A stretch of 64,000 bases of DNA, from the NCBI RefSeq assembly GCF_013266755.1, contig NZ_JABRWJ010000003.1:248001-312000 (forward strand), in the 5' to 3' direction. Below the pieces are notes generated by a model, which saw only the letters and a program-made list of their open reading frames with translations, was not told the DNA's origin and made no database searches. The DNA comes from Pseudaquabacterium terrae (lineage in GTDB: Bacteria > Pseudomonadota > Gammaproteobacteria > Burkholderiales > Burkholderiaceae_C). The position numbers and the translations under genes were made by a program. Shown here one piece after another: positions 27,149-43,448 of this stretch; position 1 is the first letter of the stretch, and the number at the start of each line of letters is the position of its first letter.

Positions 27149-27176
27149 AGCGGCAAAAGCCGCTAAGCTCGCTCGC

Positions 27177-27542
27177 ATGCCTTTGGATGATGCGAGCAAG
27201 CGAGCCGGCGGCGGCGCCGATCGACGCGAAGCCGTGCGGCGATCATTGCGCTCACCCGCGCTCGTGCTGCTGCCGGGCCAGCCGGGGCGCATCGGCAAGA
27301 CCGTCGACGTGTCTGAGACCGGTGTCTGCCTGATGCTGCCGGAGGGTCTGCCCGGCGGCACTCAATGCATGGTCGGCTTCGAGCTGCCCGACAAGGCAGG
27401 TGCCCGCAAGCGCGTGCAGTCGAAGGCGCGCGTCGTGCACAGCGTGCTGTCGAACCTCGGCGATGGCTTCAAGATCGGCATGCAGTTCCTCGACACGCCG
27501 GGCGAAACGCAGCGGGCGCTGGAGAACTTCATCCGCGAATGA
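27177..27542 (+). CDS. PilZ-domain protein
   Basis: 121 residues, one PilZ domain. The c-di-GMP-binding residues are visible: RREAVRR (RxxxR, about residues 16-22) and DVSETGVCL (DxSxxG, about 44-52), followed by the barrel strands CMVGFELPD and GFKIGMQFLD. It should bind c-di-GMP and act as an effector on an unknown partner. There is no adjacent diguanylate cyclase; the EAL protein at 6971 is 20 kb away. It starts 28 nt after the FCD regulator and may share its transcript. Confidence 0.9.
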   Translation: MPLDDASKRAGGGADRREAVRRSLRSPALVLLPGQPGRIGKTVDVSETGVCLMLPEGLPGGTQCMVGFELPDKAGARKRVQSKARVVHSVLSNLGDGFKIGMQFLDTPGETQRALENFIRE

Positions 27543-27671
27543 GGGGGCCACGGCGAAGCGTGAACGACGTCACGCGGACGCCGCTCAAGGCCGGTGAAGA
27601 ACGGCCGAAGAGGCCTTCAAGCGCACTGCCGAGCTGCCGGCGGGGACCAGCCCGGTGCGCAGGAGCCTGCC

Positions 27672-27872
27672 ATGTCGAAGAAGCCCGATCCGGTTCATCT
27701 CACGTTCGATGGCGCTGCGGCGCAGCCCCGCCCGGCCGAGGCCGCGGCGCTGGCCCTGGAGGCCGCGCGCCGCAGCAGCGCGGCCGAAGCCGCCGAAGCC
27801 GAGCGCCGCGCATTCGCCGACACCGAACCGGCGTTCCTCGACACCATCACCCCCGCGAACGACGAGGAATGA
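27672..27872 (+). CDS. small hypothetical protein, 66 residues
   Basis: Starts MSKKPDPVHLTFDG at 27672, chosen because AGGAG ends 6 nt upstream; an in-frame ATG 26 codons earlier lacks a ribosome site. The middle is a long Ala/Glu/Arg helix (AAALALEAARRSSAAEAAEAERRAF), likely amphipathic or coiled coil, and the end is DTITPANDEE. There is no membrane segment or known domain. It lies 130 nt after the PilZ gene and just before the terminator shared with gltA. Confidence 0.65.
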   Translation: MSKKPDPVHLTFDGAAAQPRPAEAAALALEAARRSSAAEAAEAERRAFADTEPAFLDTITPANDEE

Positions 27873-27883
27873 GACGCGCAGCA

Positions 27884-27911
27884 GCAAAACGGCCGCCCGA
27901 GGGCGGCCGTT
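27884..27911 (-). terminator. intrinsic terminator of the sdh-gltA transcript
   Basis: AACGGCCGCC (27888-27897), loop CGAG, GGCGGCCGTT (27902-27911). Read on the minus strand, the stem is followed by TTTTGC, a fair U-tract, 38 nt after the gltA stop. On the plus strand the tail is TTGCTG, so it works mainly for gltA. Confidence 0.75.
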
Positions 27912-27948
27912 GCTGCTGGTGCCGGCACTTGGCTGCCGGCGTGAAGCT

Positions 27949-29259
27949 TCAGCGTTCGCCGATCGGCTTGACGTTGCGCTGGCTGGCGCCGACGTAGAGC
28001 TGGCGCGGGCGGCCGATCTTGTACTCGGGGTCGCCGATCATCTCGTTGAGCTGCGCAATCCAGCCGACCGTGCGCGCGAGCGCAAAGATCGCGGTGAACA
28101 GCGACACCGGAATGCCGATCGCGCGCTGCACGATGCCCGAATAGAAGTCGACGTTCGGATAGAGCTTGCGGGCGACGAAGTATTCGTCTTCCAGCGCGAT
28201 CTTCTCCAACGCCATCGCCAGCTTGAACAGCGGGTCGTTCTCCAGGCCCAGCGCTTCGAGCACCTCGTGGCAGGTCTCGCGCATCAGCTTGGCGCGCGGG
28301 TCGTAATTCTTGTAGACGCGGTGGCCGAAGCCCATCAGCTTGACCTGCGAGTTCTTGTCCTTGACCTGGCGAATGAACTCGCCGATCTTCTCGACGCCGC
28401 CGTTGCGCTGGATGTCGACCAGCATGCTCAGCGCCGCTTCGTTGGCGCCGCCGTGCGCCGGGCCCCACAGGCAGGCCACGCCGGCGGCGATCGCCGCGAA
28501 CGGGTTGGTGCCCGACGAGCCGCACAGCCGCACCGTCGAGGTCGAGGCGTTCTGCTCATGGTCGGCGTGCAGGATGAAGATGCGGTCGATCGCGCGCACC
28601 AGCACGTCGTTGGTCTCGTACTCCTCGCACGGCGTCGCGAACATCATGCGCATGAAGTTCGCCGAATACGACAGCGAGTTCTTCGGGTAGATGAACGGCT
28701 GGCCGATGCCGTACTTGTAGGCCATCGCCACCAGCGTCGGCATCTTGGCGATCAGGCGGATCGCGGCGATGTCACGATGCTGTGCGTTGTTGATGTCGGT
28801 GCTGTCGTGATAGAAGGCCGACAGCGCGCCGACCAGGCCGGTCATCACCGCCATCGGGTGCGCATCACGGCGGAAACCGCGCAGGAAGAACTGCATCTGC
28901 TCGTTGACCATCGTGTGGTTGGTCACCAGCTTGACGAAGTCGCCCTTCTGCTGCGGGTTGGGCAGGTCGCCCTTGAGCAGCAGGTAGCAGGTCTCGAGGA
29001 AGTCGCACTGCGTCGCCAGCTGCTCGATCGGGTAGCCGCGGTACAGCAGCTCGCCCTTGTCGCCGTCGATGTAGGTGATCGTCGAGTTGCACGAGGCGGT
29101 CGACAGGAAACCGGGGTCGTAGGTGAACTTGCCGGTCTGGCCGTAGAGCTTGCGGATGTCGATCACGTCCGGGCCGATCGAGCCCCGGTAGAGCGGCAGT
29201 TCCATGCTGGGGCTGCCATCGGAGAAGGACAGCGTGGCTTTCACGTCGGACGGAGTCAT
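27949..29259 (-). CDS. gltA: citrate synthase
   Basis: 436 residues, type II (proteobacterial hexameric) citrate synthase. Catalytic residues lie in the segments [29 protein letters not shown] and [18 protein letters not shown] (His, His, then Asp further on). The N-terminal domain of type II enzymes ([19 protein letters not shown]) that carries the NADH-binding site is present. The start at 29259 ([12 protein letters not shown]) has AAGGGA 6 nt upstream; an ATG two codons earlier sits right on the ribosome site. Last gene of gntR-sdhCDAB-sdhE-gltA, followed by a terminator. Confidence 0.97.
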
Positions 29260-29283
29260 GGGCATTCCCTTTCTGAGCAAACT

Positions 29284-29562
29284 CTAGGCGGCCGCGGGTG
29301 TCCGGGCACGCAGCATGGCGAGCACCTCGGTCACCTCGGGGCAATTCAATTCGCCCTCCGGTTCTCGGCGTGCCAACAGCAGATCCAGCAAATCGTTGTC
29401 GGCCAGGTCCATCAGGGCCTGCAGCCCGGTGGCGTGGCGCACGGTCAGCGTCGCTTCATGGCGCTGGAAGAAGCGCTCGACGAAGAGGTCGTTCTCCAGC
29501 AGCCCGCGCCGGCAGCGCCACTTCAGGCGGCTCAACTCGGTGGGGTGCAGCGCGGGTTCCAT
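29284..29562 (-). CDS. sdhE: FAD assembly factor SdhE
   Basis: 92 residues. The signature RRGLLENDL (RGxxE, Arg19-Gly20 to Glu23) is the surface that binds SdhA during covalent flavinylation. The rest is the short helical SdhE fold (FFQRHEATLTVRHATGLQ, LMDLADNDLLDLLL). It sits between sdhB and gltA, 6 nt after the sdhB stop. Related proteins were once annotated as the CptB antitoxin; the sdh context supports flavinylation. Confidence 0.93.
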   Translation of the reverse strand: MEPALHPTELSRLKWRCRRGLLENDLFVERFFQRHEATLTVRHATGLQALMDLADNDLLDLLLARREPEGELNCPEVTEVLAMLRARTPAAA

Positions 29563-29568
29563 GGACCG

Positions 29569-30273
29569 TCAGACCGCCCGGCGGACCATCAGCTCTTTGA
29601 TCTTGCCGATGGCCTTCGTCGGATTCAGGCCCTTCGGGCAGACGTCGACGCAGTTCATGATCGTGTGGCAGCGGAACAGGCGGTACGGGTCCTCGAGGTT
29701 GTCGAGCCGTTCGGCTGTTCCCTGGTCACGGCTGTCGGCAATGAATCGATAGGCCTGCAGCAGGCCAGCCGGGCCGACGAACTTGTCCGGGTTCCACCAG
29801 AAACTCGGGCAGCTGGTCGAACAGCTCGCGCAGAGGATGCACTCGTAGAGGCCGTTCAGCTCGTCGCGCTCTTCGGGCGACTGCAGCCGCTCCTTCTCGG
29901 GCGGCACTTCGTCGTTGACGAGGTACGGCTTGATCGAGTTGTACTGCTTGAAGAACTGCGTCATGTCGACGATCAGGTCGCGGATCACCGGCAGGCCGGG
30001 CAGCGGCTTGAGCACGATCGGATCCTTCAGATCGCGCATGTTCGTCAGGCAGGCGAGGCCGTTCTTGCCGTTGATGTTCATCGCGTCGGAGCCGCAGACG
30101 CCTTCGCGGCACGAGCGCCGGTAGCTGATCGCCGGGTCCAGCGACTTCAGCTTGATCAGCGCGTCCAGCAGCATGCGCTCGGAACCGTCGAGCTCGACCT
30201 CGATGGTCTGCATGTAGGGCTTGGCGTCCTTGTCCGGGTCGTAGCGATAGATCTTGAAAGTGCGTTTTGCCAT
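29569..30273 (-). CDS. sdhB: succinate dehydrogenase iron-sulfur subunit
   Basis: 234 residues. N-terminal [2Fe-2S] ferredoxin domain with Cys55, Cys60, Asp63 and Cys75 (CREGVCGSDAM), the same Asp-containing arrangement as the E. coli subunit. The C-terminal domain carries ECILCASCSTSCPSF for the [4Fe-4S] cluster and CHTIMNCVDVCPKGLNP for the [3Fe-4S] and [4Fe-4S] ligands. It passes electrons from SdhA flavin to quinone at SdhCD. 21 nt after sdhA. Confidence 0.98.
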   Translation of the reverse strand: MAKRTFKIYRYDPDKDAKPYMQTIEVELDGSERMLLDALIKLKSLDPAISYRRSCREGVCGSDAMNINGKNGLACLTNMRDLKDPIVLKPLPGLPVIRDLIVDMTQFFKQYNSIKPYLVNDEVPPEKERLQSPEERDELNGLYECILCASCSTSCPSFWWNPDKFVGPAGLLQAYRFIADSRDQGTAERLDNLEDPYRLFRCHTIMNCVDVCPKGLNPTKAIGKIKELMVRRAV

Positions 30274-30294
30274 TGTCTTGTCTCTATCGCGTGA

Positions 30295-32097
30295 TCAGAA
30301 CGTCCGGACCTTGGGCGGCACGCTGTCCACCGTCAGCGGCTTCAATTGCACCGGCTTGTAGTCGAGACGGTTGCCTTCGGAGTACCACAGCGTGTGCTTC
30401 ATCCACTCGGCGTCGTTGCGGCCGAGCGGGAACTGCGCATCGTCGGCGCCGCGCTCGTAGTCCTTGACCGTGTGCGCACCGCGGCATTCACGGCGGGCGG
30501 CCGCCGATTCGATCGTCGCCTGTGCCGACTCGATCAGGTTCTCGACTTCCAGCGCCTCGATGCGCGCGGTGTTGAAGACCTTGCTCTTGTCCTTCAGCGT
30601 GATGCCGGCAACGCGTTCGCGGATCGCCGCGACCATCTTGGTGCCCTCGTCCATCGCGGCCTGCGTGCGGAACACGCCGGCATGCGTCTGCATCGCGTTG
30701 CGCAGGTCGTTGGCGACGTCCTGCGCATATTCGCCGCCGCTGGAGTTGTCGAGCCGGGCGATGCGGGCGAGCGAGTAGTCGGCCGCGTCCTTCGGCAGGT
30801 CCTTGTGGGCCTTCGGCGACTTGGCCAGGTGGTCGACGATGTGGTCGCCGGCGGCCTTGCCGAACACCAGCAGGTCGAGCAGCGAATTGGTGCCTAGCCG
30901 GTTGGCGCCGTGCACGCTGACGCACGAGCACTCGCCGACGGCATAGAAGCCGTTGACGATGCTCTTGTAGTCACCGCCCTTGGGCACGACGACCTGGCCG
31001 TGGATGTTGGTCGGGATGCCGCCCATCTGGTAGTGGATCGTCGGCACCACCGGGATCGGTTCCTTCGTGATGTCGACGTTGGCGAAGTTGTGGCCGATCT
31101 CGAGCACGCTGGGCAGGCGCTTCATGATCGTCTCGGCGCCGAGGTGGGTCATGTCGAGCTGGATGTAGTCCTTGTTCGGACCGCAACCGCGCCCTTCCTT
31201 GATCTCCTGGTCCATGCAGCGCGAGACGAAGTCGCGTGGCGCCAGGTCCTTCAAGGTCGGCGCGTAGCGCTCCATGAAGCGCTCGCCGTTGATGTTGCGC
31301 AGGATCGCGCCCTCGCCGCGGCAGCCTTCGGTCAGCAGCACGCCGGCACCGGCGACTCCTGTCGGGTGGAATTGCCAGAACTCCATGTCCTCGAGCGGAA
31401 TGCCCGCGCGCGCGGCCATGCCGAGGCCGTCACCGGTATTGATGAAGGCATTCGTCGACGCGGCATAGATGCGGCCGGCGCCACCGGTGGCGAACAGCGT
31501 GACCTTGCCTTCGAGGATGTGCACGTCGCCCGTTTCCATCTCGAGCGCGGTGACGCCGAGCACGTCACCAGACGCGTCGCGAATGAGGTCCAGCGCCATC
31601 CACTCGACGAAGAACTGCGTGCGCGCCTTGACGTTCTGCTGGTACAGCGTGTGCAGCATCGCGTGGCCGGTGCGGTCGGCGGCAGCGCAGGCGCGCTGCA
31701 CCGGCTTCTCGCCATAGTTCGCGGTGTGGCCGCCGAACGGACGCTGGTAGATCGTGCCGTCCGGGTTTCGGTCGAAGGGCATGCCGAAGTGCTCGAGCTC
31801 GTAGACGACCTTCGGCGCCTCGCGGCACATGAACTCGATCGCGTCCTGGTCGCCGAGCCAGTCGGAGCCCTTGACGGTGTCGTAGAAGTGGAAGTGCCAG
31901 TTGTCCTCGCTCATGTTGCCGAGCGAGGCGCCGATGCCGCCCTGCGCGGCAACGGTGTGCGAGCGCGTCGGGAAGACCTTGGTCAGCACCGCGACGTTGA
32001 GGCCCGCGCGGGCCAGTTGAAGCGAGGCGCGCATGCCGGAGCCACCGGCCCCGACGATCACGACATCGAATTTTCGTTTTGCGACGGCAGCAGCCAT
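30295..32097 (-). CDS. sdhA: succinate dehydrogenase flavoprotein subunit
   Basis: 600 residues. The FAD Rossmann motif GAGGSGMRAS is at about 16-25 and RSHTVAAQGGIGASLGN holds the covalent FAD His47. Other landmarks are HPTGVAGAGVLLTEGCRGEG, the substrate-site Arg in RLGTNSLLDLLVFGKAAG, and the C-terminal RRECRGAHTVKDYERGADD. It oxidises succinate to fumarate on the cytoplasmic face of the inner membrane. It begins 3 nt after sdhD, suggesting coupling. Confidence 0.98.
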   Translation of the reverse strand: MAAAVAKRKFDVVIVGAGGSGMRASLQLARAGLNVAVLTKVFPTRSHTVAAQGGIGASLGNMSEDNWHFHFYDTVKGSDWLGDQDAIEFMCREAPKVVYELEHFGMPFDRNPDGTIYQRPFGGHTANYGEKPVQRACAAADRTGHAMLHTLYQQNVKARTQFFVEWMALDLIRDASGDVLGVTALEMETGDVHILEGKVTLFATGGAGRIYAASTNAFINTGDGLGMAARAGIPLEDMEFWQFHPTGVAGAGVLLTEGCRGEGAILRNINGERFMERYAPTLKDLAPRDFVSRCMDQEIKEGRGCGPNKDYIQLDMTHLGAETIMKRLPSVLEIGHNFANVDITKEPIPVVPTIHYQMGGIPTNIHGQVVVPKGGDYKSIVNGFYAVGECSCVSVHGANRLGTNSLLDLLVFGKAAGDHIVDHLAKSPKAHKDLPKDAADYSLARIARLDNSSGGEYAQDVANDLRNAMQTHAGVFRTQAAMDEGTKMVAAIRERVAGITLKDKSKVFNTARIEALEVENLIESAQATIESAAARRECRGAHTVKDYERGADDAQFPLGRNDAEWMKHTLWYSEGNRLDYKPVQLKPLTVDSVPPKVRTF

Positions 32098-32100
32098 TTT

Positions 32101-32463
32101 TTATAGTCTCCAGAGCACCTGCACGGCCCAGCCGGTGCAGCCGACCAGCCAGGCGATCGTGGCCACCTGCGCCACCAGCTTGACGCCGACGGACTGGATG
32201 TAGTCCATCCACACGTCGCGCATGCCGACCCACGCGTGGTACGCGAGCGAGATGATGACGATGAAGGTCAGGAACTTCATCCACTGCTGCGCGAAGATGC
32301 CGGACCAGCGGTCATAGCCCAGCGGCCCGGGCAGCAGCACCTGCACCAGCAGCACCAGCGTGTACAGCGCCATCAGCGCCGCGGTGACGCGCTGGCTCAG
32401 CCAGTCGCGGAATCCGTAGTGCGCGCCAACGACGAGGCGCTTCGAACCGTAATTGCTTGCCAT
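32101..32463 (-). CDS. sdhD: succinate dehydrogenase membrane anchor SdhD
   Basis: 120 residues with three membrane helices (about 25-45, VTAALMALYTLVLLVQVLL; 60-80, FLTFIVIISLAYHAWVG; 95-118). The conserved AYHAWVGMRDVWMDYI holds the haem/quinone-site His and Asp-Tyr region. The N-terminal VVGAHYGFRDWLSQR is typical of betaproteobacterial SdhD. It starts 13 nt after sdhC. Confidence 0.94.
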   Translation of the reverse strand: MASNYGSKRLVVGAHYGFRDWLSQRVTAALMALYTLVLLVQVLLPGPLGYDRWSGIFAQQWMKFLTFIVIISLAYHAWVGMRDVWMDYIQSVGVKLVAQVATIAWLVGCTGWAVQVLWRL

Positions 32464-32476
32464 GTCGCTGCGCTCC

Positions 32477-32902
32477 TCAGTACAGGCCGAAGAGCTTGGC
32501 GCCGAGCAGCACGGTGAGCACCGTGCTTAAGCCCACCGTGACCACGGCCGACGACCGGCCCTGCTGCTTGCTGACGCTGTGCGTCGCATCCATCCACAGG
32601 TGGCGGACGCCGGCGATGGCGTGGAACAGGTAGGCCCAGATCAGCGCCAGCACGATCAGCTTGATGACGACGCCGGGGACCACGCCGATGCCGGCGACGA
32701 AGGCGCTGGCGAAGGTGTCGTACGAAATCTCGGACGTGACGCTCTTGTCGAAGAGCCAGATCACGAAGGGCAGCAGGAAGAACATCAGCATGCCGCTGCC
32801 GCGGTGCAGGATCGACACCACGCCGGCAATCGGTAGCCGGTACTGCAGCGCTTCGATCAAGCGCATGTTCGCGCCGGGCCTTGTTCTCGAGATCTCTGGC
32901 AT
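32477..32902 (-). CDS. sdhC: succinate dehydrogenase cytochrome b556 subunit SdhC
   Basis: 141 residues with three membrane helices. The quinone-site segment is LPIAGVVSILHRGSGMLMF (Ser and Arg of the pocket) and the haem His is in LFHAIAGVRHLWMD. The start MPEISRTRPGANMRL at 32902 has AAAAGAG upstream; a further in-frame extension has no support, and an internal ATG at residue 13 is a weaker choice. First sdh gene, 95 nt after the gntR stop. Whether sdh is read from its own promoter or through from gntR is not clear from the sequence. Confidence 0.95.
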   Translation of the reverse strand: MPEISRTRPGANMRLIEALQYRLPIAGVVSILHRGSGMLMFFLLPFVIWLFDKSVTSEISYDTFASAFVAGIGVVPGVVIKLIVLALIWAYLFHAIAGVRHLWMDATHSVSKQQGRSSAVVTVGLSTVLTVLLGAKLFGLY

Positions 32903-32997
32903 GGGGCTGTCTCTTTTCGTAATCCGGGTGAAACCCTTAGAGTTTATTGCAACGCACAAGGCTTACCGGAAGCTTGGATGCGTATGAACCACAGGCT

Positions 32998-33771
32998 TCA
33001 GCTCAGCGCGTTGCGATAGAAGTGGTGATCGGTGTTGTAGAGGCCGCGGCGCAGTTCGACGGGCTTGTCGCCGTAGGTGAACGACAGCCGCTCGACGCTC
33101 AACAGCGGCGTGCCCTCGCCCACCGCCAGCACGTCGGCGGTCGCCGCATCGGCGGCGACGGCGCGGATCTTTTCTTCGGCGCGGATCATGCGCACGCCGA
33201 ACTCGGTTTCGAACATGCCGTACATCGGACCCTTGTAGTCGGCCAGGCGCTCGGCGGTCAGGCCCTTGAACAGCGTGCCGGGCAGCCAGATCTCGTCGAA
33301 GACCACCGGCTTGGCATTGGCCAGCAGGAGCCGCCGCAGCAGCACCACCGCATCGCCGCTCTTGCAGTCGAGCGCGCGTGCCACCGGTGCCGGCGCGCGC
33401 AGGCGGCTGCAATCGATCAGCCGGCGCTCCATGTCGGGTGTCACGCCATCATCGGCGGTCAGGCGCAGGAAGCGGTACTGCACCTGCTGCTCGGCATGCG
33501 TGGCGACGAAGGTGCCCTTGCCTTGCCGGCGCACCAGCAGGTTGTCGGCGGCCAGCTCGTCGATCGCCTTGCGCACCGTGCCCTGGCTGACCTTGAAGCG
33601 CGCGGCGAGGTCGAGCTCGCTCGGGATCGCCTCGCCCGGCTTCCACAGCCCGGCCTGCAGCTCGCGCATGATCAGCCCCTTGATCTGCTGGTACAGCGGG
33701 CTGAAGGCCGGCGCGGCGTCCGCCGCCGCATCGGCGGCGCTCGGCAGCGTGGGAACGGTCGGCGCGGGCAT
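32998..33771 (-). CDS. GntR-family (HutC subgroup, UTRA domain) regulator of TCA genes
   Basis: 257 residues. Ala/Pro-rich N-terminal tail (1-25), winged helix (about 25-95: YQQIKGLIMRELQAGLWKPGE, RFKVSQGTVRKAIDELAADN, RRQGKGTFVATH) and UTRA ligand-binding domain (about 105-250: DMERRLIDCSRLR, VFDEIWLPGTLFKGL, LLSVERLSFTYGDKPVELRRG, ending RGLYNTDHHFY). It lies between sdhC and mdh, transcribed with the sdh side. The divergent region holds GTCTTATAGAAGAC, and a perfect version lies in the acnB promoter, so this protein is the natural candidate for binding both. The effector is unknown. Confidence 0.9.
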   Translation of the reverse strand: MPAPTVPTLPSAADAAADAAPAFSPLYQQIKGLIMRELQAGLWKPGEAIPSELDLAARFKVSQGTVRKAIDELAADNLLVRRQGKGTFVATHAEQQVQYRFLRLTADDGVTPDMERRLIDCSRLRAPAPVARALDCKSGDAVVLLRRLLLANAKPVVFDEIWLPGTLFKGLTAERLADYKGPMYGMFETEFGVRMIRAEEKIRAVAADAATADVLAVGEGTPLLSVERLSFTYGDKPVELRRGLYNTDHHFYRNALS

Positions 33772-33824
33772 GGCCCGGATTGCAACACAGCGTCACGGGG
33801 GTCGTCCACCAAATGCTGACAGTT

Positions 33825-33845
33825 GTCTTATAGAAGACATAAGAC
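33825..33845 (+). promoter_or_regulatory. operator-like site in the mdh/gntR divergent region
   Basis: GTCTTATAGAAGAC (33825-33838) followed by ATAAGAC (33839-33845). It is a near copy of the perfect palindrome GTCTTATATAAGAC at the acnB promoter; aligned from 33825 and 40792, the two sites share 17 of the first 18 bases. It lies just upstream of the mdh promoter. Confidence 0.7.
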
Positions 33846-33847
33846 CT

Positions 33848-33876
33848 TTGACAGCCTCGGTATCAACCCCTAGACT
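33848..33876 (+). promoter_or_regulatory. sigma-70-type promoter of mdh
   Basis: TTGACA (33848-33853, full consensus), a 17-bp spacer, TAGACT (33871-33876). It lies 111 nt before the mdh start and immediately downstream of the operator-like site, so a bound protein would sit at or just above the -35. Confidence 0.7.
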
Positions 33877-33987
33877 GGCCTACACTCCCGACCTCGTTCC
33901 GGTCCGCGCGCGCCACCTGAGGCCGAGCGCCCCGTCCGCACGTCGTCCGGTCGCCGCTTTTTCTTCACCATCCGCCTGGAGTTCCCC

Positions 33988-34974
33988 ATGAGCAAGAAGC
34001 CCGTCCGCGTGGCCGTCACCGGCGCCGCCGGCCAGATCGGTTATGCCCTGTTGTTCCGCATCGCCTCCGGAGAAATGCTGGGCAAGGACCAGCCGGTGAT
34101 CCTGCAGCTGCTGGAGATCCCGGACGAGAAGGCGCAGAAGGCGCTCAAGGGCGTGATGATGGAACTGGACGACTGCGCCTTCCCGCTGCTGGCCGGCATG
34201 GAAGCGCACGGCGATGCGAACACCGCCTTCAAGGACACCGACTACGCGCTGCTCGTCGGCGCCCGCCCGCGCGGCCCCGGCATGGAACGCGCCGACCTGC
34301 TAGCCGCCAATGCCCAGATCTTCACCGCACAGGGCAAGGCGCTGAACGCCGTGGCTTCGCGCAACGTGCGCGTGCTGGTCGTCGGCAACCCGGCCAACAC
34401 CAATGCCTACATCGCGATGAAGTCGGCGCCGGATCTGCCGCGCAAGAACTTCACCGCCATGCTGCGCCTGGACCACAACCGTGCGCTGAGCCAGATCGCC
34501 GCGAAGACCGGCAAGCCGGTGTCGTCGATCAAGAAGCTGGCCGTCTGGGGCAACCACTCGCCGACGATGTACGCCGACTACCGCTTCGCGACGATCGATG
34601 GCGCCAGCGTCAAGGACATGATCAACGACGACGCCTGGAACCGCGACGTGTTCCTGCCCACCGTCGGCAAGCGCGGCGCGGCGATCATCGAGGCGCGCGG
34701 CCTGTCGTCGGCTGCCTCGGCGGCCAACGCGGCGATCGACCACATGCGCGACTGGGCGCTGGGCACCAACGGCGAATGGGTCACGATGGGCGTGCCGAGC
34801 AACGGCGAATACGGCATCCCGAAGGACATCATGTTCGGCTACCCGGTCACCTGCGAAGGCGGCGAGTACAAGCTGGTCGAAGGCCTGGCCATCGACGAGT
34901 TCTCGCAGCAGTGCATCAACAAGACCCTCGCAGAGTTGCAAGGCGAGCAGGACGGCGTCAAGCACCTGCTGTGA
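33988..34974 (+). CDS. mdh: malate dehydrogenase
   Basis: 328 residues, the LDH-like MDH type of betaproteobacteria. NAD-binding [14 protein letters not shown] at 11-24; substrate loop [22 protein letters not shown]; catalytic His in [14 protein letters not shown] near 188. It oxidises malate to oxaloacetate. CTGGAG lies 6 nt before the ATG at 33988. It is monocistronic: a strong terminator follows 32 nt after the stop. Divergent from gntR-sdh-gltA, so the two halves of the TCA locus share one regulatory region. Confidence 0.98.
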
Positions 34975-35005
34975 TGCTCCCGGGCCGCGGCCCGGCGTAA
35001 GCTCC

Positions 35006-35048
35006 GAAGGGCCGGTCGGCATCGCTGCCACCGGCCCTTCTTCTTTCC
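35006..35048 (+). terminator. intrinsic terminator after mdh
   Basis: GAAGGGCCGGT (35006-35016) with ACCGGCCCTTC (35030-35040), perfect 11 bp, with an inner GGCA/TGCC extension and loop TCGC; tail TTCTTTCC. It ends only 14 nt before the next start codon, so the lyase gene at 35062 must be read through or have a promoter inside mdh. Confidence 0.85.
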
Positions 35049-35061
35049 CCACGACCCGACC

Positions 35062-36066
35062 ATGACCGAATCCGTGCTGCCCCGCGACGTGCTGTTCGAC
35101 GACGGCGACGTCGCCCCCGACCTCCCCGTCTGCGACCACTACTGCGGCGTCGAAGCGCGCATGCACAAGAGCCTGGCGCTGCAAGCCGAGCTCGGGCCGG
35201 TGTTCGACGTGACGCTCGATTGCGAGGACGGCGCACCGGTCGGCGCCGAGCGCGAGCATGCGCAGATGGTCGCCGACATCGTGCTGTCGAACGCGAACAA
35301 CTTCGGCCGTGTCGGCGCACGCGCGCATCCGGTCGAGCACCCGGCCTTCGAAGCCGATCTCGAGACGCTGATCGGCCGCGCCGGCGACCGGCTCGCCTAC
35401 CTGATGATCCCGAAGCCACGCCACCTGGCCGACGCGCAGCGGGCGATCGCCGCCGTCGAGCAGGTGATCGCGCGCAGCGGCCGCGGCGCACGCCTGCCGC
35501 TGCACATGCTGATCGAGACCCACGGCGGGTTGCGCGACGTGATGGCCATTGCCGCGCTGCCGCGCATCGAATCGCTGTCTTTTGGATTGATGGACTTCGT
35601 CTCGGCGCACCGCGGTGCGATACCGCAGACGGCGATGGGCGCGAAGGGCCAGTTCGAGCATCCGCTGGTGGTGCGCGCGAAGCTGGAGATCTCCGCCGCC
35701 TGCCACGCCGCGGCGAAGGTACCGTCGCACTGCGTCGTCACCGAGTTCAAGGATCAGAAGGCGCTGGGCGCCGCGGCCACGCGCGCGGCGCGCGAGTTCG
35801 GCTACACGCGCATGTGGAGCATCCACCCGGCGCAGATCGAGCCGATCATCGAGGCCTTCGCGCCCAGCGTCGCCGAGATCGACGAAGCGATCGAGATCAT
35901 CGCCGCCGCGCAAGCCGCGTTGTGGGCGCCGATCCGCCACCGTGACACCTTGCACGACCGCGCGAGTTACCGCTACTTCTGGCAGGTGCTCGAGCGCGCG
36001 CGCCGCACCGGGCAGCCCTTGCCGGCGCAAGCAGAACAGGCCTTCTTCGGCTCGGCAAGGAACTAA
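35062..36066 (+). CDS. HpcH/HpaI aldolase / CitE-like lyase
   Basis: 334 residues, TIM barrel of the CitE/malyl-CoA lyase family. Landmarks: VFDVTLDCEDGAPVGAE (Mg-binding Glu/Asp), LMIPKPRHLADA, LHMLIETHGGLRDVMAIAALPRI (second acidic ligand), LSFGLMDFVSAH, and MWSIHPAQIEPI near the C terminus. These enzymes cleave or form malyl-CoA, citramalyl-CoA or similar esters. The N-terminal VCDHYCGVEARMHKSLALQ differs from the RSVLFVPG opening of CitE itself and is closer to L-malyl-CoA or beta-methylmalyl-CoA lyases. The place beside mdh suggests a link to malate or glyoxylate, but this is not shown. Confidence 0.88.
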   Translation: MTESVLPRDVLFDDGDVAPDLPVCDHYCGVEARMHKSLALQAELGPVFDVTLDCEDGAPVGAEREHAQMVADIVLSNANNFGRVGARAHPVEHPAFEADLETLIGRAGDRLAYLMIPKPRHLADAQRAIAAVEQVIARSGRGARLPLHMLIETHGGLRDVMAIAALPRIESLSFGLMDFVSAHRGAIPQTAMGAKGQFEHPLVVRAKLEISAACHAAAKVPSHCVVTEFKDQKALGAAATRAAREFGYTRMWSIHPAQIEPIIEAFAPSVAEIDEAIEIIAAAQAALWAPIRHRDTLHDRASYRYFWQVLERARRTGQPLPAQAEQAFFGSARN

Positions 36067-36212
36067 GTCGGTTTTCCACGGTCCCTTGCTGGCCGTTGCA
36101 GTGCTGGCTTTCACTGACACCGGCGGGACCCCCGCACACCTGAGAATGCGGCAACCCCTCGTCCCGCCCGTGCGCGGCTTAACTTGTCCGTTCGAGAGTG
36201 AGCGCTGTCCCG

Positions 36213-36758
36213 ATGATCCGTCTTGCCCCCCGCCTGCCGCGCCCGGCCCTTGCGCTGGTCCTGTCCACCCTGCTGGCCGGCGTCGCGCACGCGGCCGGTG
36301 AAGCGCCGGCCGCCAAGGCACCGGCGAAGAAACCCGCCGCGAAGGCCGAGCAGCACGAGCCCGCCACCGAAGCGCAGCTCGCGGTCGCGATGCGCGTGCT
36401 GACCGGCGACGCCGACTGCGAGTTCAAGCAGACGATCTCGGTGACCCCGATCGAAGGCCATGCCGGCCACTTCAACCTGACCTTCAAGAAGGTCAGCTAC
36501 CGGATGGTCCCGCAGGAAACCACCACCGGTGCCGTGCGGCTCGAGGACAAGAAGGCCGGGATGATCTGGATCCAGATCCCCGCCAAATCGATGCTGATGA
36601 ACGCGAAGATCGGCCAGCGGGTGGTCGACGACTGCACGCATTCCGAACAGCGCGCCGCGGTCGCGGCCGCCGCCGCTGCCGGCCGGTCGCAGCAGGCCGA
36701 GGGGTCGATCGGCATCTCCCCGGCCGCCGCCAGTACCGGCGTGGCACCCCGCAACTGA
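36213..36758 (+). CDS. secreted hypothetical protein, 181 residues
   Basis: Starts MIRLAPRLPRPALALVLSTL at 36213; a GTG at 36198 would add five residues. Sec signal peptide to about residue 24 (ending GVAHA), then an Ala/Lys/Pro-rich linker (AAKAPAKKPAAKAE) and a compact domain with AMRVLTGDADCEFKQTISV and WIQIPAKSMLMNAKIGQRVVDDC. The two Cys residues could pair in the periplasm. The C terminus is Ala-rich and probably disordered. I do not recognise the family beyond a conserved exported protein of Burkholderiales. It starts 146 nt after the lyase gene. Confidence 0.75.
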   Translation: MIRLAPRLPRPALALVLSTLLAGVAHAAGEAPAAKAPAKKPAAKAEQHEPATEAQLAVAMRVLTGDADCEFKQTISVTPIEGHAGHFNLTFKKVSYRMVPQETTTGAVRLEDKKAGMIWIQIPAKSMLMNAKIGQRVVDDCTHSEQRAAVAAAAAAGRSQQAEGSIGISPAAASTGVAPRN

Positions 36759-36850
36759 CGCGCCCACCCGCAGCTGCACCCGTGCGCCGGCGAGAGCCGG
36801 CGTAGGATGGTCCGGCCGGTCACCGCCGGCGCCATCATCGCTCGCACACG

Positions 36851-39800
36851 ATGCAGCCAGCCACCGCTCCCGCGCTGCGCAGCTACCAGCTCAGCGACAA
36901 CCTCGCCGCCACCGAGGACCAGGTCTTCCTCACCGGCACGCAGGCGCTGGTGAAGCTGCTGCTGATGCAGCGCGCGCTCGACAGCGCGCAGGGCCTGCGC
37001 ACCGCCGGTTTCGTCTCCGGCTACCGCGGCAGCCCGCTCGGCATGGTCGACCTGCAGCTGTGGAAAGCCAAGGCGCTGCTCGATGCCGCGGGCGTCGACT
37101 TCCTGCCGGCGATCAACGAAGACCTGGCCGCCACCGCCTGCCTCGGCACGCAGCGCGTCGCGCTCGATCCGCAGCGCCGTGTCGATGGCGTCACCGCGCT
37201 GTGGTACGGCAAGGGCCCCGGCGTCGACCGGTCCGGCGACGCGCTGAAGCACGGCAACGCGTATGGCGCCAGCCCGCAGGGCGGCGTGCTGGTGATTGCC
37301 GGTGACGACCACGGTTGCGTGTCGTCGTCGATGCCGCACCAGTCAGATCTCGCGATGCAGGCCTGGAGCATGCCGGTGCTGCACCCGGCGAACGTCGCCG
37401 AGTACCTCGAATTCGGGCTCTACGGCTGGGCGCTGTCGCGCTTTTCGGGCGCCTGGGTCGGCTTCAAGGCGATCAGCGAGGTCGTCGAGTCCGGCATGAC
37501 GGTCGACCTCGACGCGGTGCCCTTCGACTTCGAGCTGCCGGTGGACTTCAAGCCCGCCGCTTCGCTGCACGTGCGCGCGGTCGACCTGCCCTCGCTGGAC
37601 ATCGAGGCGCGGCTGGCATTGAAGCTCGACGCGGTGCGCGCCTTCGCGCAGCTCAACTCGGTCGACAAGCACATCGTCGCCAGCCCGAGCGCGACGCTGG
37701 GGATCGTCACCGTCGGCAAGGCGCACTTCGATTTCATGGAGGTGCTGCGCCGGCTCGACCTCGACCCGAACGCGCTGGCCGCGGCCGGCGTGCGGGTCTA
37801 CAAGGTCGGCCTGGTGTTCCCGCTCGAACCGACGCGGCTGCGCGAATTCGCACAAGGCCTCGACGAGCTGCTGGTCATCGAGGAGAAGGCACCGCTGGTC
37901 GAGCGCCAGATCAAGGAGCTGCTCTACGAGCTGCCCGATGCGCAGCGCCCGCGCGTGGCGGGCAAGACCGATCCACGCGGCGCGCCGCTGCTGTCCGCGC
38001 TGGGCGAGCTGCGGCCTTCGCGCGTGATGCCGGTGGTCGCCGAATGGCTGGCGCGGCTGAACCCCGCGCTCGACCGCCGCCACCTGGTGATCGACTTCAC
38101 GATGCCGAAGCTGCTGTCGAATCCGGCCGATGCGGTGAAGCGCCAGCCCTACTTCTGCTCCGGCTGCCCGCACAACACCAGCACCCGGGTGCCCGAAGGC
38201 TCGCATGCGCTGGCCGGCATCGGCTGCCACTTCATGGCCAGCTGGATGGAGCGCCGCACCTCGGGGCTGATCCAGATGGGCGCCGAGGGCGTCGACTGGG
38301 TCGCGCACTCGCGCTTCACGAACGATGCGCACGTGTTCCAGAACCTGGGCGACGGCACCTACTACCACTCGGGCTACCTCGCGATCCGCCAGGCCATCGC
38401 CGCCGGCACGACGATCACCTACAAGCTGCTCTACAACGATGCGGTCGCGATGACCGGCGGCCAGCCGGTCGACGGCAAGATCGGCGTGCCGGAGATCGCG
38501 CGCCAGGTCGAGGCCGAAGGCGCGGTGCGGGTGGTGGTGGTCTCCGACGACATCGGCAAGTACCGCGGCCGCGAAGCCGAGTTCCCGCGCGACACCACGT
38601 TCCACGACCGCGCGGCGATGGACAGCGTGCAGCGTGAATTGCGCGAGATCCGCGGCGTCAGCATCCTGATCTACGACCAGACCTGCGCCGCCGAGAAGCG
38701 CCGCCGCCGCAAGAAAGGCGAGCTCGCCGACCCGCCGCGCCGCATCTTCATCAACGAGCAGGTCTGCGAAGGCTGCGGCGACTGCGGCCAGGCCTCGAAC
38801 TGCCTGTCGGTGATTCCGGTCGAGACCGACTGGGGCCGCAAGCGCCAGATCGAGCAGAGCTCGTGCAACAAGGACTACTCCTGCGTCAACGGCTTCTGCC
38901 CGAGCTTCGTGTCGGTCTACGGCGCGGTGCCGAAGAAGCGGGTCGGTGCCGGTGTCGATGCCGACGCGCTGCAGCGCGAGCTGGCGGCCATTCGCCCACC
39001 GGCACCGTGGACCTGGACCGGCCCGTTCGACCTGCTGATCACCGGCGTCGGCGGCACCGGCGTGATCACGATCGGCATGCTGGTGACCATGGCCGCTCAC
39101 CTGGAGCGCAAGCAGGCGTCGATCCTCGACTTCATGGGCTTCGCGCAGAAAGGCGGCGCGGTGCTCAGCTACGTGCGCCTGGCGCCCAGCGCCGACCAGT
39201 TGAACCAGGTGCGCATCGACACCCAGCAGGCCGACGCGATCCTCGCCTGCGACCTGGTCGTCGGCGCGTCGGCCGATGCGCTGGGCACTGTCAAGCACGG
39301 GCGCACCGAGATCCTCGCCAACACGCACGAGCTGGCGACCGCGGCCGCGGTGCGCGATCCGAACGCCGACCTGCATGCCGGCGCGCTGCTCGACAAGATG
39401 CGCTTCGCCGCCGGCGACGATCGCGTGGCGACGATCGATGCGCAGGCGATCGCGCTGAAGCTGCTCGGCGACACGATGCCCTCGAACATGGTGATGCTGG
39501 GCGCCTGCTGGCAGCGTGGGCTGGTGCCGGTCGGCGAAGCGGCGCTGATGCGTGCGCTGGAGCTGAATGCGGTGGCGGTCGAGGACAACAAGACCGCCTT
39601 CGCGCTCGGCCGGCTGGCGGTGGCCGCGCCCGCAGCGCTGCAGCGCCTGGCCGGCGATGCGGCCGCGCCGCCGCCGGCGGCCGGCACGGCGCTCGACGCG
39701 CTGATCGAGCGCCGCGCCGCCTTCCTCACCGCCTACCAGGACGCCGCGTATGCCCGCCGCTACCGCGCGCTGGTCGAACGGGTGCGTGCGGCCGAACGCC

Positions 39801-40360
39801 CACTGAGCGCCGAGCTGCGCCTGACCGAAGCGGTCGCGCGCAGCTACGCCAAGCTGCTGGCGATCAAGGACGAGTACGAGGTCGCGCGGCTGTACACCGA
39901 CGGCCGCTTCGAGGCTTCGCTGCGAGAACAGTTCGAGCACTGGGAGCGCATCGATTTCCACATGGCCCCACCGCTGCTGGCCAAGGCCGGGCCGGACGGA
40001 CGCATCCAGAAGATGCGCTTCGGTCCGTGGCTGATGCGGGCGATGAAGCCGCTGGCGGTGCTGCGCCGGCTGCGTGGCACGCTGCTCGATCCGTTCGGCC
40101 ACACCGCGGAGCGGCGGCTCGAACGGCAGCTGATCGCCGACTACGAGGCGCTGGTCGACGAGTTGCTGCGCGGGCTGACTGCGACCAAGCTGCCGCTGGC
40201 GCTGAAGCTGGCACGGCTGCCCGAAGGCATCCGCGGCTACGGCCACGTGAAGCTGGCCAATGCCGCCAGCGTCAAGGCGCAGTGGACCGACCTGCTGCAG
40301 CGCCTGCGCAGCGGCAGCGAAGCCACCTCGCCGGTCGAACAGCCCGTGCTTTTTCGCTAG
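36851..40360 (+). CDS. indolepyruvate ferredoxin oxidoreductase family protein (fused)
   Basis: 1169 residues. One chain carries the parts of 2-oxoacid:ferredoxin oxidoreductases: N-terminal pyrimidine-binding region (FVSGYRGSPLGMVDLQLW, about 55-75), TPP domain (PYFCSGCPHNTSTRVPEG, about 435-450, then AGIGCHFMASWM), an iron-sulfur segment (VCEGCGDCGQASNC, about 638-651, with more Cys downstream) and a C-terminal gamma domain (ITGVGGTGVITIGMLV, about 730-745, AQKGGAVLSYVRL). It oxidatively decarboxylates aryl or branched-chain 2-oxoacids to acyl-CoA. Aerobic proteobacteria carry this large fused form for aromatic amino acid breakdown, which would feed arylacetyl-CoA to pathways such as paa. 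The link to the paa cluster is inference. Confidence 0.93.
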   Translation: MQPATAPALRSYQLSDNLAATEDQVFLTGTQALVKLLLMQRALDSAQGLRTAGFVSGYRGSPLGMVDLQLWKAKALLDAAGVDFLPAINEDLAATACLGTQRVALDPQRRVDGVTALWYGKGPGVDRSGDALKHGNAYGASPQGGVLVIAGDDHGCVSSSMPHQSDLAMQAWSMPVLHPANVAEYLEFGLYGWALSRFSGAWVGFKAISEVVESGMTVDLDAVPFDFELPVDFKPAASLHVRAVDLPSLDIEARLALKLDAVRAFAQLNSVDKHIVASPSATLGIVTVGKAHFDFMEVLRRLDLDPNALAAAGVRVYKVGLVFPLEPTRLREFAQGLDELLVIEEKAPLVERQIKELLYELPDAQRPRVAGKTDPRGAPLLSALGELRPSRVMPVVAEWLARLNPALDRRHLVIDFTMPKLLSNPADAVKRQPYFCSGCPHNTSTRVPEGSHALAGIGCHFMASWMERRTSGLIQMGAEGVDWVAHSRFTNDAHVFQNLGDGTYYHSGYLAIRQAIAAGTTITYKLLYNDAVAMTGGQPVDGKIGVPEIARQVEAEGAVRVVVVSDDIGKYRGREAEFPRDTTFHDRAAMDSVQRELREIRGVSILIYDQTCAAEKRRRRKKGELADPPRRIFINEQVCEGCGDCGQASNCLSVIPVETDWGRKRQIEQSSCNKDYSCVNGFCPSFVSVYGAVPKKRVGAGVDADALQRELAAIRPPAPWTWTGPFDLLITGVGGTGVITIGMLVTMAAHLERKQASILDFMGFAQKGGAVLSYVRLAPSADQLNQVRIDTQQADAILACDLVVGASADALGTVKHGRTEILANTHELATAAAVRDPNADLHAGALLDKMRFAAGDDRVATIDAQAIALKLLGDTMPSNMVMLGACWQRGLVPVGEAALMRALELNAVAVEDNKTAFALGRLAVAAPAALQRLAGDAAAPPPAAGTALDALIERRAAFLTAYQDAAYARRYRALVERVRAAERPLSAELRLTEAVARSYAKLLAIKDEYEVARLYTDGRFEASLREQFEHWERIDFHMAPPLLAKAGPDGRIQKMRFGPWLMRAMKPLAVLRRLRGTLLDPFGHTAERRLERQLIADYEALVDELLRGLTATKLPLALKLARLPEGIRGYGHVKLANAASVKAQWTDLLQRLRSGSEATSPVEQPVLFR

Positions 40361-40462
40361 CAGCGGCCACCCCTAGCGCAGATCTCCGAGCCTCGCAAGC
40401 CCGACACCCCGGTTCTCCGCCGCAGCGCTGGGTCATTCATCCGTACAAACCCGAAAGCCGAT

Positions 40463-40784: not shown

Positions 40785-40812
40785 TTGGCAAGTCTTATAT
40801 AAGACATAAAAT
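40785..40812 (+). promoter_or_regulatory. acnB promoter with palindromic operator
   Basis: TTGGCA (40785-40790), a 16-bp spacer, TAAAAT (40807-40812). The spacer holds GTCTTATATAAGAC (40792-40805), a perfect 14-bp palindrome. A protein bound there would block RNA polymerase. The related site at 33825 suggests the HutC-type GntR regulator. Confidence 0.75.
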
Positions 40813-40844: not shown

Positions 40845-43448
40845 ATGCTGACCGCCTATCGCCAACACGCCGCCGAACGCGCCGCCCTCGGCATTCCGCC
40901 GCTGCCGCTGTCGGCGCAACAGACCGCCGAGCTGGTCGAGCTGATCAAGGCCCCGCCGGCGGGTGAAGGCGCGTTCCTCGTCGAGCTGCTGACGCACCGC
41001 GTGCCGCCGGGCGTCGACGACGCCGCCAAGGTCAAGGCGAGCTTCCTGTCGGCCGTCGCGCACGGCGACTTCGCGGTCGGGCTGCTCACCCGCGCGCAGG
41101 CCACCGAGCTGCTCGGCACGATGGTCGGCGGCTACAACGTCAAGCCGCTGATCGACCTGCTCGACGACGCCGAGGTCGCCCCGGTCGCCGCGGCCGCGCT
41201 GAAGAAGACGCTGCTGATGTTCGACTTCTTCCACGACGTCGCCGAGAAGGCCAAGGCCGGCAACACCCACGCCAAGCAGGTGATCGGCAGCTGGGCCGAC
41301 GCCGAGTGGTTCACCTCGCGCCCCGAAGTGGCGCGCAAGATCACCGTCACCGTCTTCAAGGTACCGGGCGAGACCAACACCGACGACCTGTCGCCCGCGC
41401 CCGACGCCTGGAGCCGCCCGGACATCCCGCTGCACTACCTGGCGATGCTGAAGAACACCCGCGACGGCTCGGCCTTCAAGCCCGAGGAAGACGGCAAGCG
41501 CGGCCCGATGCGGTTCATCGACGAGCTGAAGAAGAAGGGCCACGTCGTCGCCTACGTCGGCGACGTCGTCGGCACCGGCTCGAGCCGCAAGAGTGCGACC
41601 AACAGCGTGATCTGGGCCACCGGCGACGACATCCCCTTCGTGCCGAACAAGCGTTTCGGCGGCGTCACGCTCGGCGGCAAGATCGCGCCGATCTTCTTCA
41701 ACACGCAGGAAGACTCTGGTTCGCTGCCGATCGAGGTCGACGTCTCGAAGCTCGAGATGGGCGACGTGGTCGACGTGCTGCCCTACGACGGCAAGCTGGT
41801 GCGCAACGGTGAGACCGTCGCCGAATTCGCGCTGAAGAGCGACGTGCTGCTCGATGAAGTGCGCGCCGGCGGCCGCATCAACCTGATCATCGGCCGCTCG
41901 CTCACCGCCAAGGCGCGTGACTTCCTCGGCCTGCCTGCCTCCACCACCTTCCGTCTGCCGAAGCCGCCGGTCGACTCCGGCAAGGGCTTCACGCTGGCGC
42001 AGAAGATGGTCGGCCGCGCCTGCGGCCTGGCCACCATCAACGGCCAGCAGCAAGGCATCCGCCCGGGCACCTACTGCGAGCCGAAGATGACCACCGTCGG
42101 CAGCCAGGACACCACCGGCCCGATGACGCGCGACGAGCTGAAGGACCTGGCCTGCCTGGGCTTCTCGGCCGACCTCGTGATGCAGAGCTTCTGCCACACC
42201 GCGGCCTATCCGAAGCCGGTCGACGTCAAGACGCACCGCGAGCTGCCGGCCTTCATCTCCAGCCGCGGCGGCGTCTCGCTGCGCCCGGGTGACGGCGTGA
42301 TCCACTCGTGGCTCAACCGCCTGCTGCTGCCCGACACCGTCGGCACCGGCGGCGATTCGCACACCCGCTTCCCGATCGGCATCTCGTTCCCGGCCGGCTC
42401 GGGCCTGGTGGCCTTCGGCGCCGCCACCGGCGTGATGCCGCTGGACATGCCCGAATCGGTGCTGGTGCGCTTCAAGGGCAAGATGCAGCCCGGCATCACG
42501 CTGCGCGATCTCGTGCACGCAATTCCGTACGCCGCGATCCAGAAGGGCCTGCTGACGGTTGCCAAGCAGGGCAAGAAGAACATCTTCTCCGGCCGCATCC
42601 TCGAGATCGAGGGCCTGCCGGACCTGAAGGTGGAACAGGCCTTCGAGCTCTCCGACGCGTCGGCCGAACGCTCGGCCGCCGGCTGCACGGTCAAGCTGAA
42701 TCCGGCCCCGATCATCGAGTACCTCACCAGCAATGTCGTGCTGATGAAGAACATGATCGTCGACGGCTACGCCGACCGCCGCACGCTGGAGCGCCGCATC
42801 AAGGCCGTCGAGGCCTGGATCGCCAACCCGCAGCTGCTCGACGCCGATGCCGACGCCGAGTACGCCGAGGTGATCGAGATCGACCTCGACACGCTGACCG
42901 AGCCGGTGCTGTGCTGCCCCAACGATCCGGACGACGCCAAGCTGCTGTCCGCCGTGCAGGGCGTGAAGATCGACGAGGTCTTCATCGGCTCGTGCATGAC
43001 CAACATCGGCCACTTCCGCGCCGCGTCGAAGCTGCTCGAAGGCAAGCGCGACATCCCCGTCAAGCTGTGGATCGCGCCGCCGACGAAGATGGATGCCAGC
43101 GAGCTGACCAAGGAAGGCCACTACGGCGTCTTCGGCACTGCTGGTGCCCGCACCGAGATGCCCGGCTGCAGCCTGTGCATGGGCAACCAGGCCCAGGTGC
43201 GCGAAGGTGCGACGGTCGTATCGACCAGCACCCGCAACTTCCCGAACCGGCTCGGCAAGAACTCCAACGTCTACCTGGCATCGGCCGAGCTCGCGGCGAT
43301 CGCGTCGAAGCTCGGCCGCATCCCGACCGTCGAGGAGTACCACGCCGACATGGGCGTCATCAACAAGGACGGCGACAAGGTCTACCGCTACATGAACTTC
43401 GACCAGATCGAGGAGTACGCGGAGGCGGCGAAGAGCGTGGCGGCCTGA
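40845..43448 (+). CDS. acnB: aconitase B (bifunctional aconitate hydratase / 2-methylisocitrate dehydratase)
   Basis: 867 residues, the AcnB length and domain order: N-terminal HEAT-like domain ([20 protein letters not shown] to about 160), swivelling domain 4 (about 170-380), then the catalytic domains. The [4Fe-4S] ligands are in [20 protein letters not shown] and [33 protein letters not shown] is also intact. It isomerises citrate to isocitrate. AGGAG lies 8 nt before the ATG at 40845. It stands alone between two terminators with its own operator-bearing promoter. The 2-methylisocitrate activity known for AcnB would also serve a methylcitrate route. Confidence 0.97.

What the first reader, a model, noticed from the sequence alone, without database searches (positions are those of the whole stretch)
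33825..33845. One operator word shared by mdh/gntR and acnB suggests a local TCA regulon
GTCTTATAGAAGACATAAGAC lies between mdh and gntR-sdhCDAB-gltA, and GTCTTATATAAGAC followed by ATAA lies in the acnB promoter 7 kb away. From 33825 and 40792 the two share 17 of 18 leading bases. I found no third copy by eye. The only fitting regulator here is the HutC-type GntR gene at 32998-33771, whose relatives bind such palindromes. One regulator would then set citrate synthase, SDH, malate dehydrogenase and aconitase together.
Basis: partly seen in the sequence, partly recalled or inferred. Interest (0 to 1): 0.72.

Follow-up and report, generated by a model that had tools for sequence, protein, structure and literature searches.

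The report
SdhR operators controlling TCA-cycle genes
A DNA word that sits in front of several energy-metabolism genes is very probably the landing site of a neighbouring regulator protein called SdhR, a system already predicted by others, and here its layout suggests that the protein switches these genes off by sitting on their promoters.

Summary
In detail: two near-identical words lie at 33825-33845 and 40792-40812, with 0.10 matches expected by chance in the window. The genome holds one further copy, in front of isocitrate lyase aceA. The word follows the HutC-type GntR gene: 79 of 80 named loci carry it within 400 bp upstream of that gene. In 16 of 16 genomes whose protein is only 31-42% identical, a word lies between divergent mdh and that gene. 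It is present in 111 of 129 genomes with a strong orthologue, against 9 of 109 without (61 intermediate or special genomes are counted apart in the report). The system is not new: the motif is in print as that of SdhR, HutC subfamily (PMC4494728). Added here: the site at mdh/sdhR is three 7-bp half-sites with fixed polarity towards mdh (122 of 123 loci). The acnB operator fills the -35/-10 spacer, which argues for repression. The acnB arm is lineage-specific (7 of 37 named loci with acnB). Binding, direction of control and ligand are unproven.

The parts
33825..33845 (+). SdhR operator between sdhR and mdh: three half-sites GTCTTAT-AGAAGAC-ATAAGAC, third half-site on the mdh side
32998..33771 (-). 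sdhR: GntR-family regulator, HutC subfamily (GntR + UTRA domains)
   Evidence: Pfam; orthologues; PDB 3cnv effector domain, E 4.2e-56
33848..33876 (+). mdh promoter-like TTGACA-17-TAGACT; -35 begins 2 bp after the third half-site
   Evidence: TTGAC at operator positions 24-27 in 67 of 123 loci
33988..34974 (+). mdh, malate dehydrogenase
32477..32902 (-). sdhC
32101..32463 (-). sdhD
30295..32097 (-). sdhA
29569..30273 (-). sdhB
29284..29562 (-). sdhE-like small ORF of 92 aa in the operon (name recalled, not tested)
27949..29280 (-). gltA, citrate synthase (start codon not settled)
40792..40812 (+). SdhR operator at acnB: GTCTTAT-ATAAGAC-ATAAAAT; the third half-site doubles as the -10 box
40785..40812 (+). 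acnB promoter-like TTGGCA-16-TAAAAT with the operator core filling the spacer
   Evidence: conserved in most acnB promoters of the lineage
40845..43448 (+). acnB, bifunctional aconitase B / 2-methylisocitrate dehydratase

Best explanation
The word is the operator of SdhR, the HutC-subfamily GntR protein encoded next to it. In this genome SdhR has three operator places. They serve mdh together with sdhR-sdhCDAB-(sdhE)-gltA, acnB, and aceA. An SdhR dimer most likely binds the central palindrome and a further subunit binds the 7-bp-phased third half-site. At acnB the bound protein fills the spacer between -35 and -10 and so blocks RNA polymerase; at mdh it sits directly upstream of -35. SdhR would thus repress the shared limb of the TCA and glyoxylate cycles and its own gene until a ligand, presumably a carboxylate or related intermediate of that pathway, binds the UTRA domain. 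Shown here: the words, their count, their co-occurrence and synteny with sdhR, their polarity and their promoter geometry. Inferred: binding, repression, autoregulation, operon read-through to gltA, and ligand type.
For: Two copies in the window against 0.10 expected. Three places in 8 Mb. Site within 400 bp upstream of sdhR at <=2 mismatches in 79 of 80 named loci. In 16 of 16 hand-picked genomes of diverged families a word lies between divergent mdh and a 31-42% identical HutC protein. Word at <=1 mismatch in 111 of 129 strong-orthologue genomes, 38 of 38 genomes of five diverged families, 9 of 109 others; Fisher 1.3e-36 for strong versus others, and 1.5e-20 if the 38 are counted as lacking the protein; neither is corrected for phylogeny. 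Third half-site on the mdh side in 122 of 123. Operator inside the acnB promoter spacer; TTGAC right after the operator on the mdh strand in 67 of 123. Same protein subfamily and motif in print as SdhR (PMC4494728).
Against: No binding or expression data. At mdh the operator is upstream of -35, a position also used by activators. No sigma-70-like promoter for sdhR was found on its strand and one search did not settle one, so autorepression is inferred. 18 of 129 strong-orthologue genomes have no word at <=1 mismatch. L024, a same-genus locus, has only a 3-mismatch word upstream of sdhR, and L085 has none at <=3. The spacing differs from the usual HutC-subfamily consensus, as PMC4494728 itself notes.
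Confidence: 0.82

Rival explanations
1. SdhR binds these words but is a dual regulator: it activates mdh from the site upstream of -35 and represses acnB from the site in the spacer.
For: Different operator positions exist: -35 at +24 to +27 for mdh (67 of 123) and at +24/+25 for acnB in other families (8 of 13), but at -6 to -8 for most acnB sites of this lineage.
Against: Opposite control of enzymes of one cycle is hard to rationalise. Doubled aceA operators put copies at both positions in one promoter, which fits joint repression better. acnB itself uses either position in different families.
Confidence: 0.2
2. Another protein (for example the FCD-type GntR at 26504-27148) binds the word.
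For: It is the only other GntR-family gene of the neighbourhood that was examined here.
Against: The word sits next to the HutC gene in 79 of 80 named loci and 16 of 16 diverged genomes. No comparable test was made for the FCD gene. The published motif belongs to a HutC-subfamily protein.
Confidence: 0.03
3. The two words are a chance or purely promoter-sequence resemblance (TATAA-rich promoters).
For: TATAAG and TAAAAT inside the words resemble -10 boxes; a 10-of-12 promoter match overlaps the acnB word.
Against: Chance 0.10 in the window. Near-invariant TCTT and AAGA units over 119 distinct core sites. The reversed control word does not follow sdhR: 22 of 129 genomes with the protein, 34 of 109 without.
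Confidence: 0.01

Closest known systems
SdhR (GntR family, HutC subfamily), predicted regulator; PMC4494728, which cites Suvorova, Ravcheev and Gelfand 2012 J Bacteriol (not held; not read)
   Same: HutC subfamily; the printed motif TCTTATGTCTTATATAAGACATAAGA covers both window words (0-1 mismatches in the central 14 bp); the name implies sdh control.
   Different: Printed as a palindrome with additional symmetry. Here the site at sdhR-mdh is polar, with the fourth box within one mismatch in only 10 of 123 loci. 'sdh' occurs once in its main text, so regulon members and promoter geometry of SdhR are not given there.
DasR / NagR (YvoA), HutC-subfamily repressors
   Same: Both are PDB matches to the window protein over both domains (E 5e-22 and 8e-21).
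   Different: Most HutC-subfamily sites have GT and AC 4 nt apart (PMC4494728 passage); this operator has TCTT/AAGA units in a 7-bp phase. Their amino-sugar targets are recalled, not looked up.
HutC and PhnF equivalog families (NCBIfam)
   Same: Significant HMM similarity.
   Different: Below both curated cut-offs: 119.4 against 220 and 117.8 against 156.8 bits.
PDB 3cnv, 'putative GntR-family transcriptional regulator' (162 residues)
   Same: Best PDB match; it aligns to the UTRA part of the window protein, residues 97-256, E 4.2e-56.
   Different: No function in its name; its ligand was not looked up.

Membership tests
SdhR regulog | GntR DNA-binding domain plus UTRA domain (HutC subfamily) | tested here: met
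SdhR regulog | Operator matches TCTTATGTCTTATATAAGACATAAGA | tested here: met
   Central 14 bp with 0-1 mismatches plus the right-hand box (exact at mdh, one mismatch at acnB); the left-hand box is absent at both window sites
SdhR regulog | Gene next to sdhCDAB, operator next to the gene (taken from the name and from the loci, not from a printed definition) | tested here: met
SdhR regulog | Protein binds the operator | not testable with these tools
   needs gel shift
HutC (histidine utilisation repressor equivalog TIGR02018) | Score above curated cut-off 220 bits | tested here: not met
   119.4 bits
PhnF (TIGR02325) | Score above curated cut-off 156.8 bits | tested here: not met
   117.8 bits
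HutC-subfamily canonical operator | GT and AC separated by 4 nt | tested here: not met
   sequence of the sites; PMC4494728 lists SdhR as an exception

The most novel reading that the evidence does not exclude
SdhR reads a polar operator of three 7-bp-phased half-sites, so an odd subunit or a second dimer must join. It works mainly from two positions about three helical turns (30 bp) apart relative to the promoter: just upstream of -35, and inside the -35/-10 spacer. The operator has been placed independently in front of unrelated or only distantly related enzymes of the same step (two isocitrate lyase types, dimeric and monomeric isocitrate dehydrogenase, AcnA and AcnB), so that control follows the metabolic step rather than the gene. 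(Odds lowered from 0.40 to 0.35 on the recount: 5 of 13 acnB sites of other families use further positions.)
Probability: 0.35. Interest if true: 0.55.

Novelty: new member of a known kind. Interest (0 to 1): 0.4.

Why it matters
It gives a predicted regulator of central carbon metabolism in Burkholderiales a conserved operator anatomy, a promoter geometry that predicts repression, and a list of targets that differs by lineage and can be tested in non-pathogenic laboratory species. A solved effector-domain structure of a relative (3cnv) makes the ligand question approachable.

Tried and rejected

A group of regulon members that I first called prpB (methylisocitrate lyase) from weak similarity to AceA is the second type of isocitrate lyase; one of the three was tested (NF005074). 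The prpB label is wrong.

A sigma-70-like promoter for sdhR was sought on its strand and not settled. The aceA promoter of this genome was not settled either (best 8 of 12, with the operator downstream of its -35 and overlapping its -10).

Promoter positions that do not fit the two main ones: acnB of other families has -35 overlapping the core at +5 in 4 of 13 and at +17 in 1 of 13; 1 of 20 acnB sites of this lineage (L061) has no match; two acnA sites have -35 at -15; none of 6 icd sites has a match at either main position; most single aceA sites gave no clear promoter.

The third half-site is not always on the gene side. Gene-side better: core 122 of 123, acnB of this lineage 20 of 20, acnB of other families 9 of 13, aceA 19 of 25, acnA 4 of 4. 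For the other isocitrate lyase it is 0 of 3, icd 3 of 6, monomeric icd 1 of 5, argD/argF 0 of 4.

I considered that the word might belong to the FCD GntR at 26504-27148; nothing supports it, but it was not tested across genomes. An RNA explanation was checked: no Rfam family at gathering score in 26000-44000.

Genomes with many 14-mer words: with the 24-bp profile at E<=0.05, G099 (11 words at <=1 mismatch) keeps three places (acnB, aceA, mdh-sdhR). The remaining words there were not examined. G211, one of the 16 diverged genomes, has a second word that is not next to sdhR (L220).

Literature: 9 searches. By listing, the 14-base word occurs in one paper, PMC4494728. SdhR together with GntR occurs in that paper and in a Staphylococcus aureus paper (PMC8396210, listing only, not read); SdhR with succinate dehydrogenase occurs in two further papers (listing only, not read). 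The six-term search found none. I saw no experimental study of this regulator in these listings; subscription journals are mostly not held. The 2012 J Bacteriol paper that PMC4494728 cites is not held.

Full report
OBSERVATION. GTCTTATAGAAGACATAAGAC is at 33825-33845 and GTCTTATATAAGACATAAAAT at 40792-40812. In the 64-kb window the 14-base palindrome with up to 3 mismatches occurs only at these two places; shuffles give 0.10 on average and none of 100 had two. In the whole genome (8,039,486 bases) there are three places at <=2 mismatches, against one for the reversed control word. The third, G000:C54:110262-110275, lies about 100 bp upstream of a gene on the minus strand whose product is isocitrate lyase AceA. 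A 24-bp sequence profile made from 58 sites (it includes the three own sites) finds the same three places and nothing else at E<=10.

THE REGULATOR. The gene at 32998-33771 encodes a GntR domain followed by a UTRA domain, the HutC build. It scores below the curated cut-offs of the true HutC and PhnF families. The nearest solved structure by sequence is 3cnv, which covers the effector part and is named only 'putative GntR-family transcriptional regulator' (E 4.2e-56).

PROTEIN AND WORD TRAVEL TOGETHER. In 60 relatives, 51 have a protein match at E<=1e-20 and 48 have the word at <=1 mismatch. In 299 genomes drawn from the order (completeness 95 or more asked for; protein, word) I cross-tabulated the two. 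Genomes with a strong orthologue (E<=1e-60, own genome included): 111 of 129 have the word (reversed control word 22 of 129). Genomes with no match at E<=1e-40 and outside five special families: 9 of 109 have it (control word 34 of 109). Fisher p is 1.3e-36, without correction for shared ancestry. Left out of that test are 23 genomes with intermediate matches (6 with the word; 4 of 4 in family f33, 2 of 19 elsewhere) and 38 genomes of families f5, f14, f22, f28 and f50. All 38 of those have the word (42 words in all; control word in 10) although they lack a match at E<=1e-40. Setting those five families apart was done after seeing the counts; if the 38 are put with the genomes lacking the protein, the comparison is 111 of 129 against 47 of 147, Fisher 1.5e-20.

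THE SPECIAL FAMILIES. I took 19 genomes with the word, chosen by hand (14 from those five families, 2 from f33, 3 others), and located word and protein. In 16 of 16 genomes of these six families a word sits between a divergent mdh and a HutC-type gene of 31-42% identity, with sdhC seen downstream in 12 of 16 three-kb loci. G211 has a second word elsewhere (L220). G184, fetched later, shows the same arrangement. So the arrangement was checked in 15 of the 38 genomes; the other 23 were not looked at. In the three other genomes (G069, G076, G128) no mdh, sdh or sdhR match lies in the 3-kb locus around the word.

NAMED LOCI. In 80 named loci from GTDB genomes (the best 80 of 576 candidates), 79 have the word at <=2 mismatches within 400 bp upstream of sdhR, 79 have divergent mdh (the contig of L070 ends before it) and 72 show sdhC or sdhA downstream. 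L085 lacks the word even at 3 mismatches.

OPERATOR ANATOMY. 126 loci were pooled (30 relatives, 80 named, 16 diverged); L070 (no mdh) and L085 (no word) drop out, giving 124, of which 119 are distinct over 64 bp; L024 has only a 3-mismatch word and drops out of the later counts, giving 123. Oriented with mdh to the right, the strongly conserved letters are TCTT(A/C)TA(T/G)AAGA(C/T)ATAAGA, that is GTCTTAT-ATAAGAC-ATAAGAC, three half-sites at 7-bp phase. The third half-site is the better flank on the mdh side in 122 of 123 loci and within one mismatch in 118; the opposite flank is within one mismatch in 10. PMC4494728 prints a symmetric motif for SdhR; at this locus the site is polar. At other targets polarity varies (counts in Tried and rejected).

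PROMOTER GEOMETRY. On the mdh strand a TTGAC starts at operator positions 24-27 in 67 of 123 loci. TTGAC occurs within positions 21-42 in 68 of 123, within the control window 61-82 in 3, and in the mirrored window on the sdhR strand in 8. In this genome the mdh promoter match is TTGACA-17-TAGACT at 33848-33876, just after the operator. At acnB it is TTGGCA-16-TAAAAT at 40785-40812 and the operator core fills the spacer. Among the 20 acnB sites of this lineage, TTGGCA is exact in 13 and TAAAAT in 19 at that spacing. In other families acnB mostly has the operator upstream of -35 instead, with -35 at +24/+25 in 8 of 13; 4 of 13 have -35 inside the core (+5) and 1 at +17. The two main positions differ by about 30 bp. 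Six genomes of different genera have two operators at aceA spaced exactly 30 bp (L035, L036, L040, L042, L045; L213). In five of the six (not L040) a moderate promoter match, 8-9 of 12, puts the distal copy upstream of -35 and the proximal one in the spacer. A protein sitting in a normal 16-17-bp spacer is most simply a repressor; this is inference.

REGULON. I fetched 60 regions around words in other genomes, picked by hand from capped lists. The gene beside the word could be assigned in 49 of 60: aceA 13, a second type of isocitrate lyase 3, acnB 13, dimeric icd 6, monomeric icd 5, acnA 4, argD 3, argF 1, mdh-sdhR 1. The other 11 lie near other genes and were not judged. In this genome only mdh/sdhR-sdh-gltA, acnB and aceA carry the word. 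The acnB arm is patchy: 7 of 37 named loci with acnB have it, and those 37 loci show no site other than at mdh-sdhR and acnB at E<=2. Control of sdhCDAB-gltA rests on short gaps between the genes and on the absence of a promoter-like match on their strand; the name sdhE is recalled.

WHAT IS KNOWN. PMC4494728 (I read the abstract and outline, passages, the section on additional half-sites and the second part of the reference list) names SdhR of the HutC subfamily with motif TCTTATGTCTTATATAAGACATAAGA and cites a 2012 J Bacteriol paper that is not held. It also reports extra half-sites near many GntR-family sites. PMC5343134 (passages only) has no 'SdhR' in its main text. The finding is therefore a genome-specific instance of a known prediction, with added anatomy. 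Whether the added anatomy or the target list is recorded in RegPrecise or the 2012 paper I could not check.

VERDICT. Observation confirmed; interpretation supported with corrections; kind already known. The parts that I have not seen in print are the fixed polarity, the two main promoter positions and the lineage-specific acnB arm. Binding, direction and ligand need experiments.

Noticed in passing
window 24254-27148: An FCD-type GntR gene (26504-27148) lies divergent from a methylmalonyl-CoA mutase-like gene (24254-26476; name by recall), possibly its own local regulator pair.
   Followed up: no
window 36851-40360: A 1169-aa ORF that looks like an indolepyruvate ferredoxin oxidoreductase (name by recall) lies between mdh and acnB.
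   Followed up: no
L035, L036, L040, L042, L045, L213: aceA promoters of six genera carry two SdhR-type words exactly 30 bp apart, start to start.
   Followed up: partly
aceA loci such as L037, L040, L044, L046, L047, L213: A TTGATT-like element recurs some 20-30 bp upstream of the aceA operators (seen by eye); it may be a -35 box or another regulator's site.
   Followed up: no
L207, L210, L215, L165: The word also lies upstream of argD (three genomes) and argF (one), outside the TCA cycle.
   Followed up: partly
L177, L179, L182: A variant word GTCTTATACAAGAC / GTCTTGTATAAGAC lies between an rplM-like and an osmC-like gene (names by recall) in three small genomes of one genus.
   Followed up: no
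G099: This genome has 11 copies of the 14-mer at <=1 mismatch but only three places by the 24-bp profile at E<=0.05; the rest may be an unrelated repeat.
   Followed up: partly
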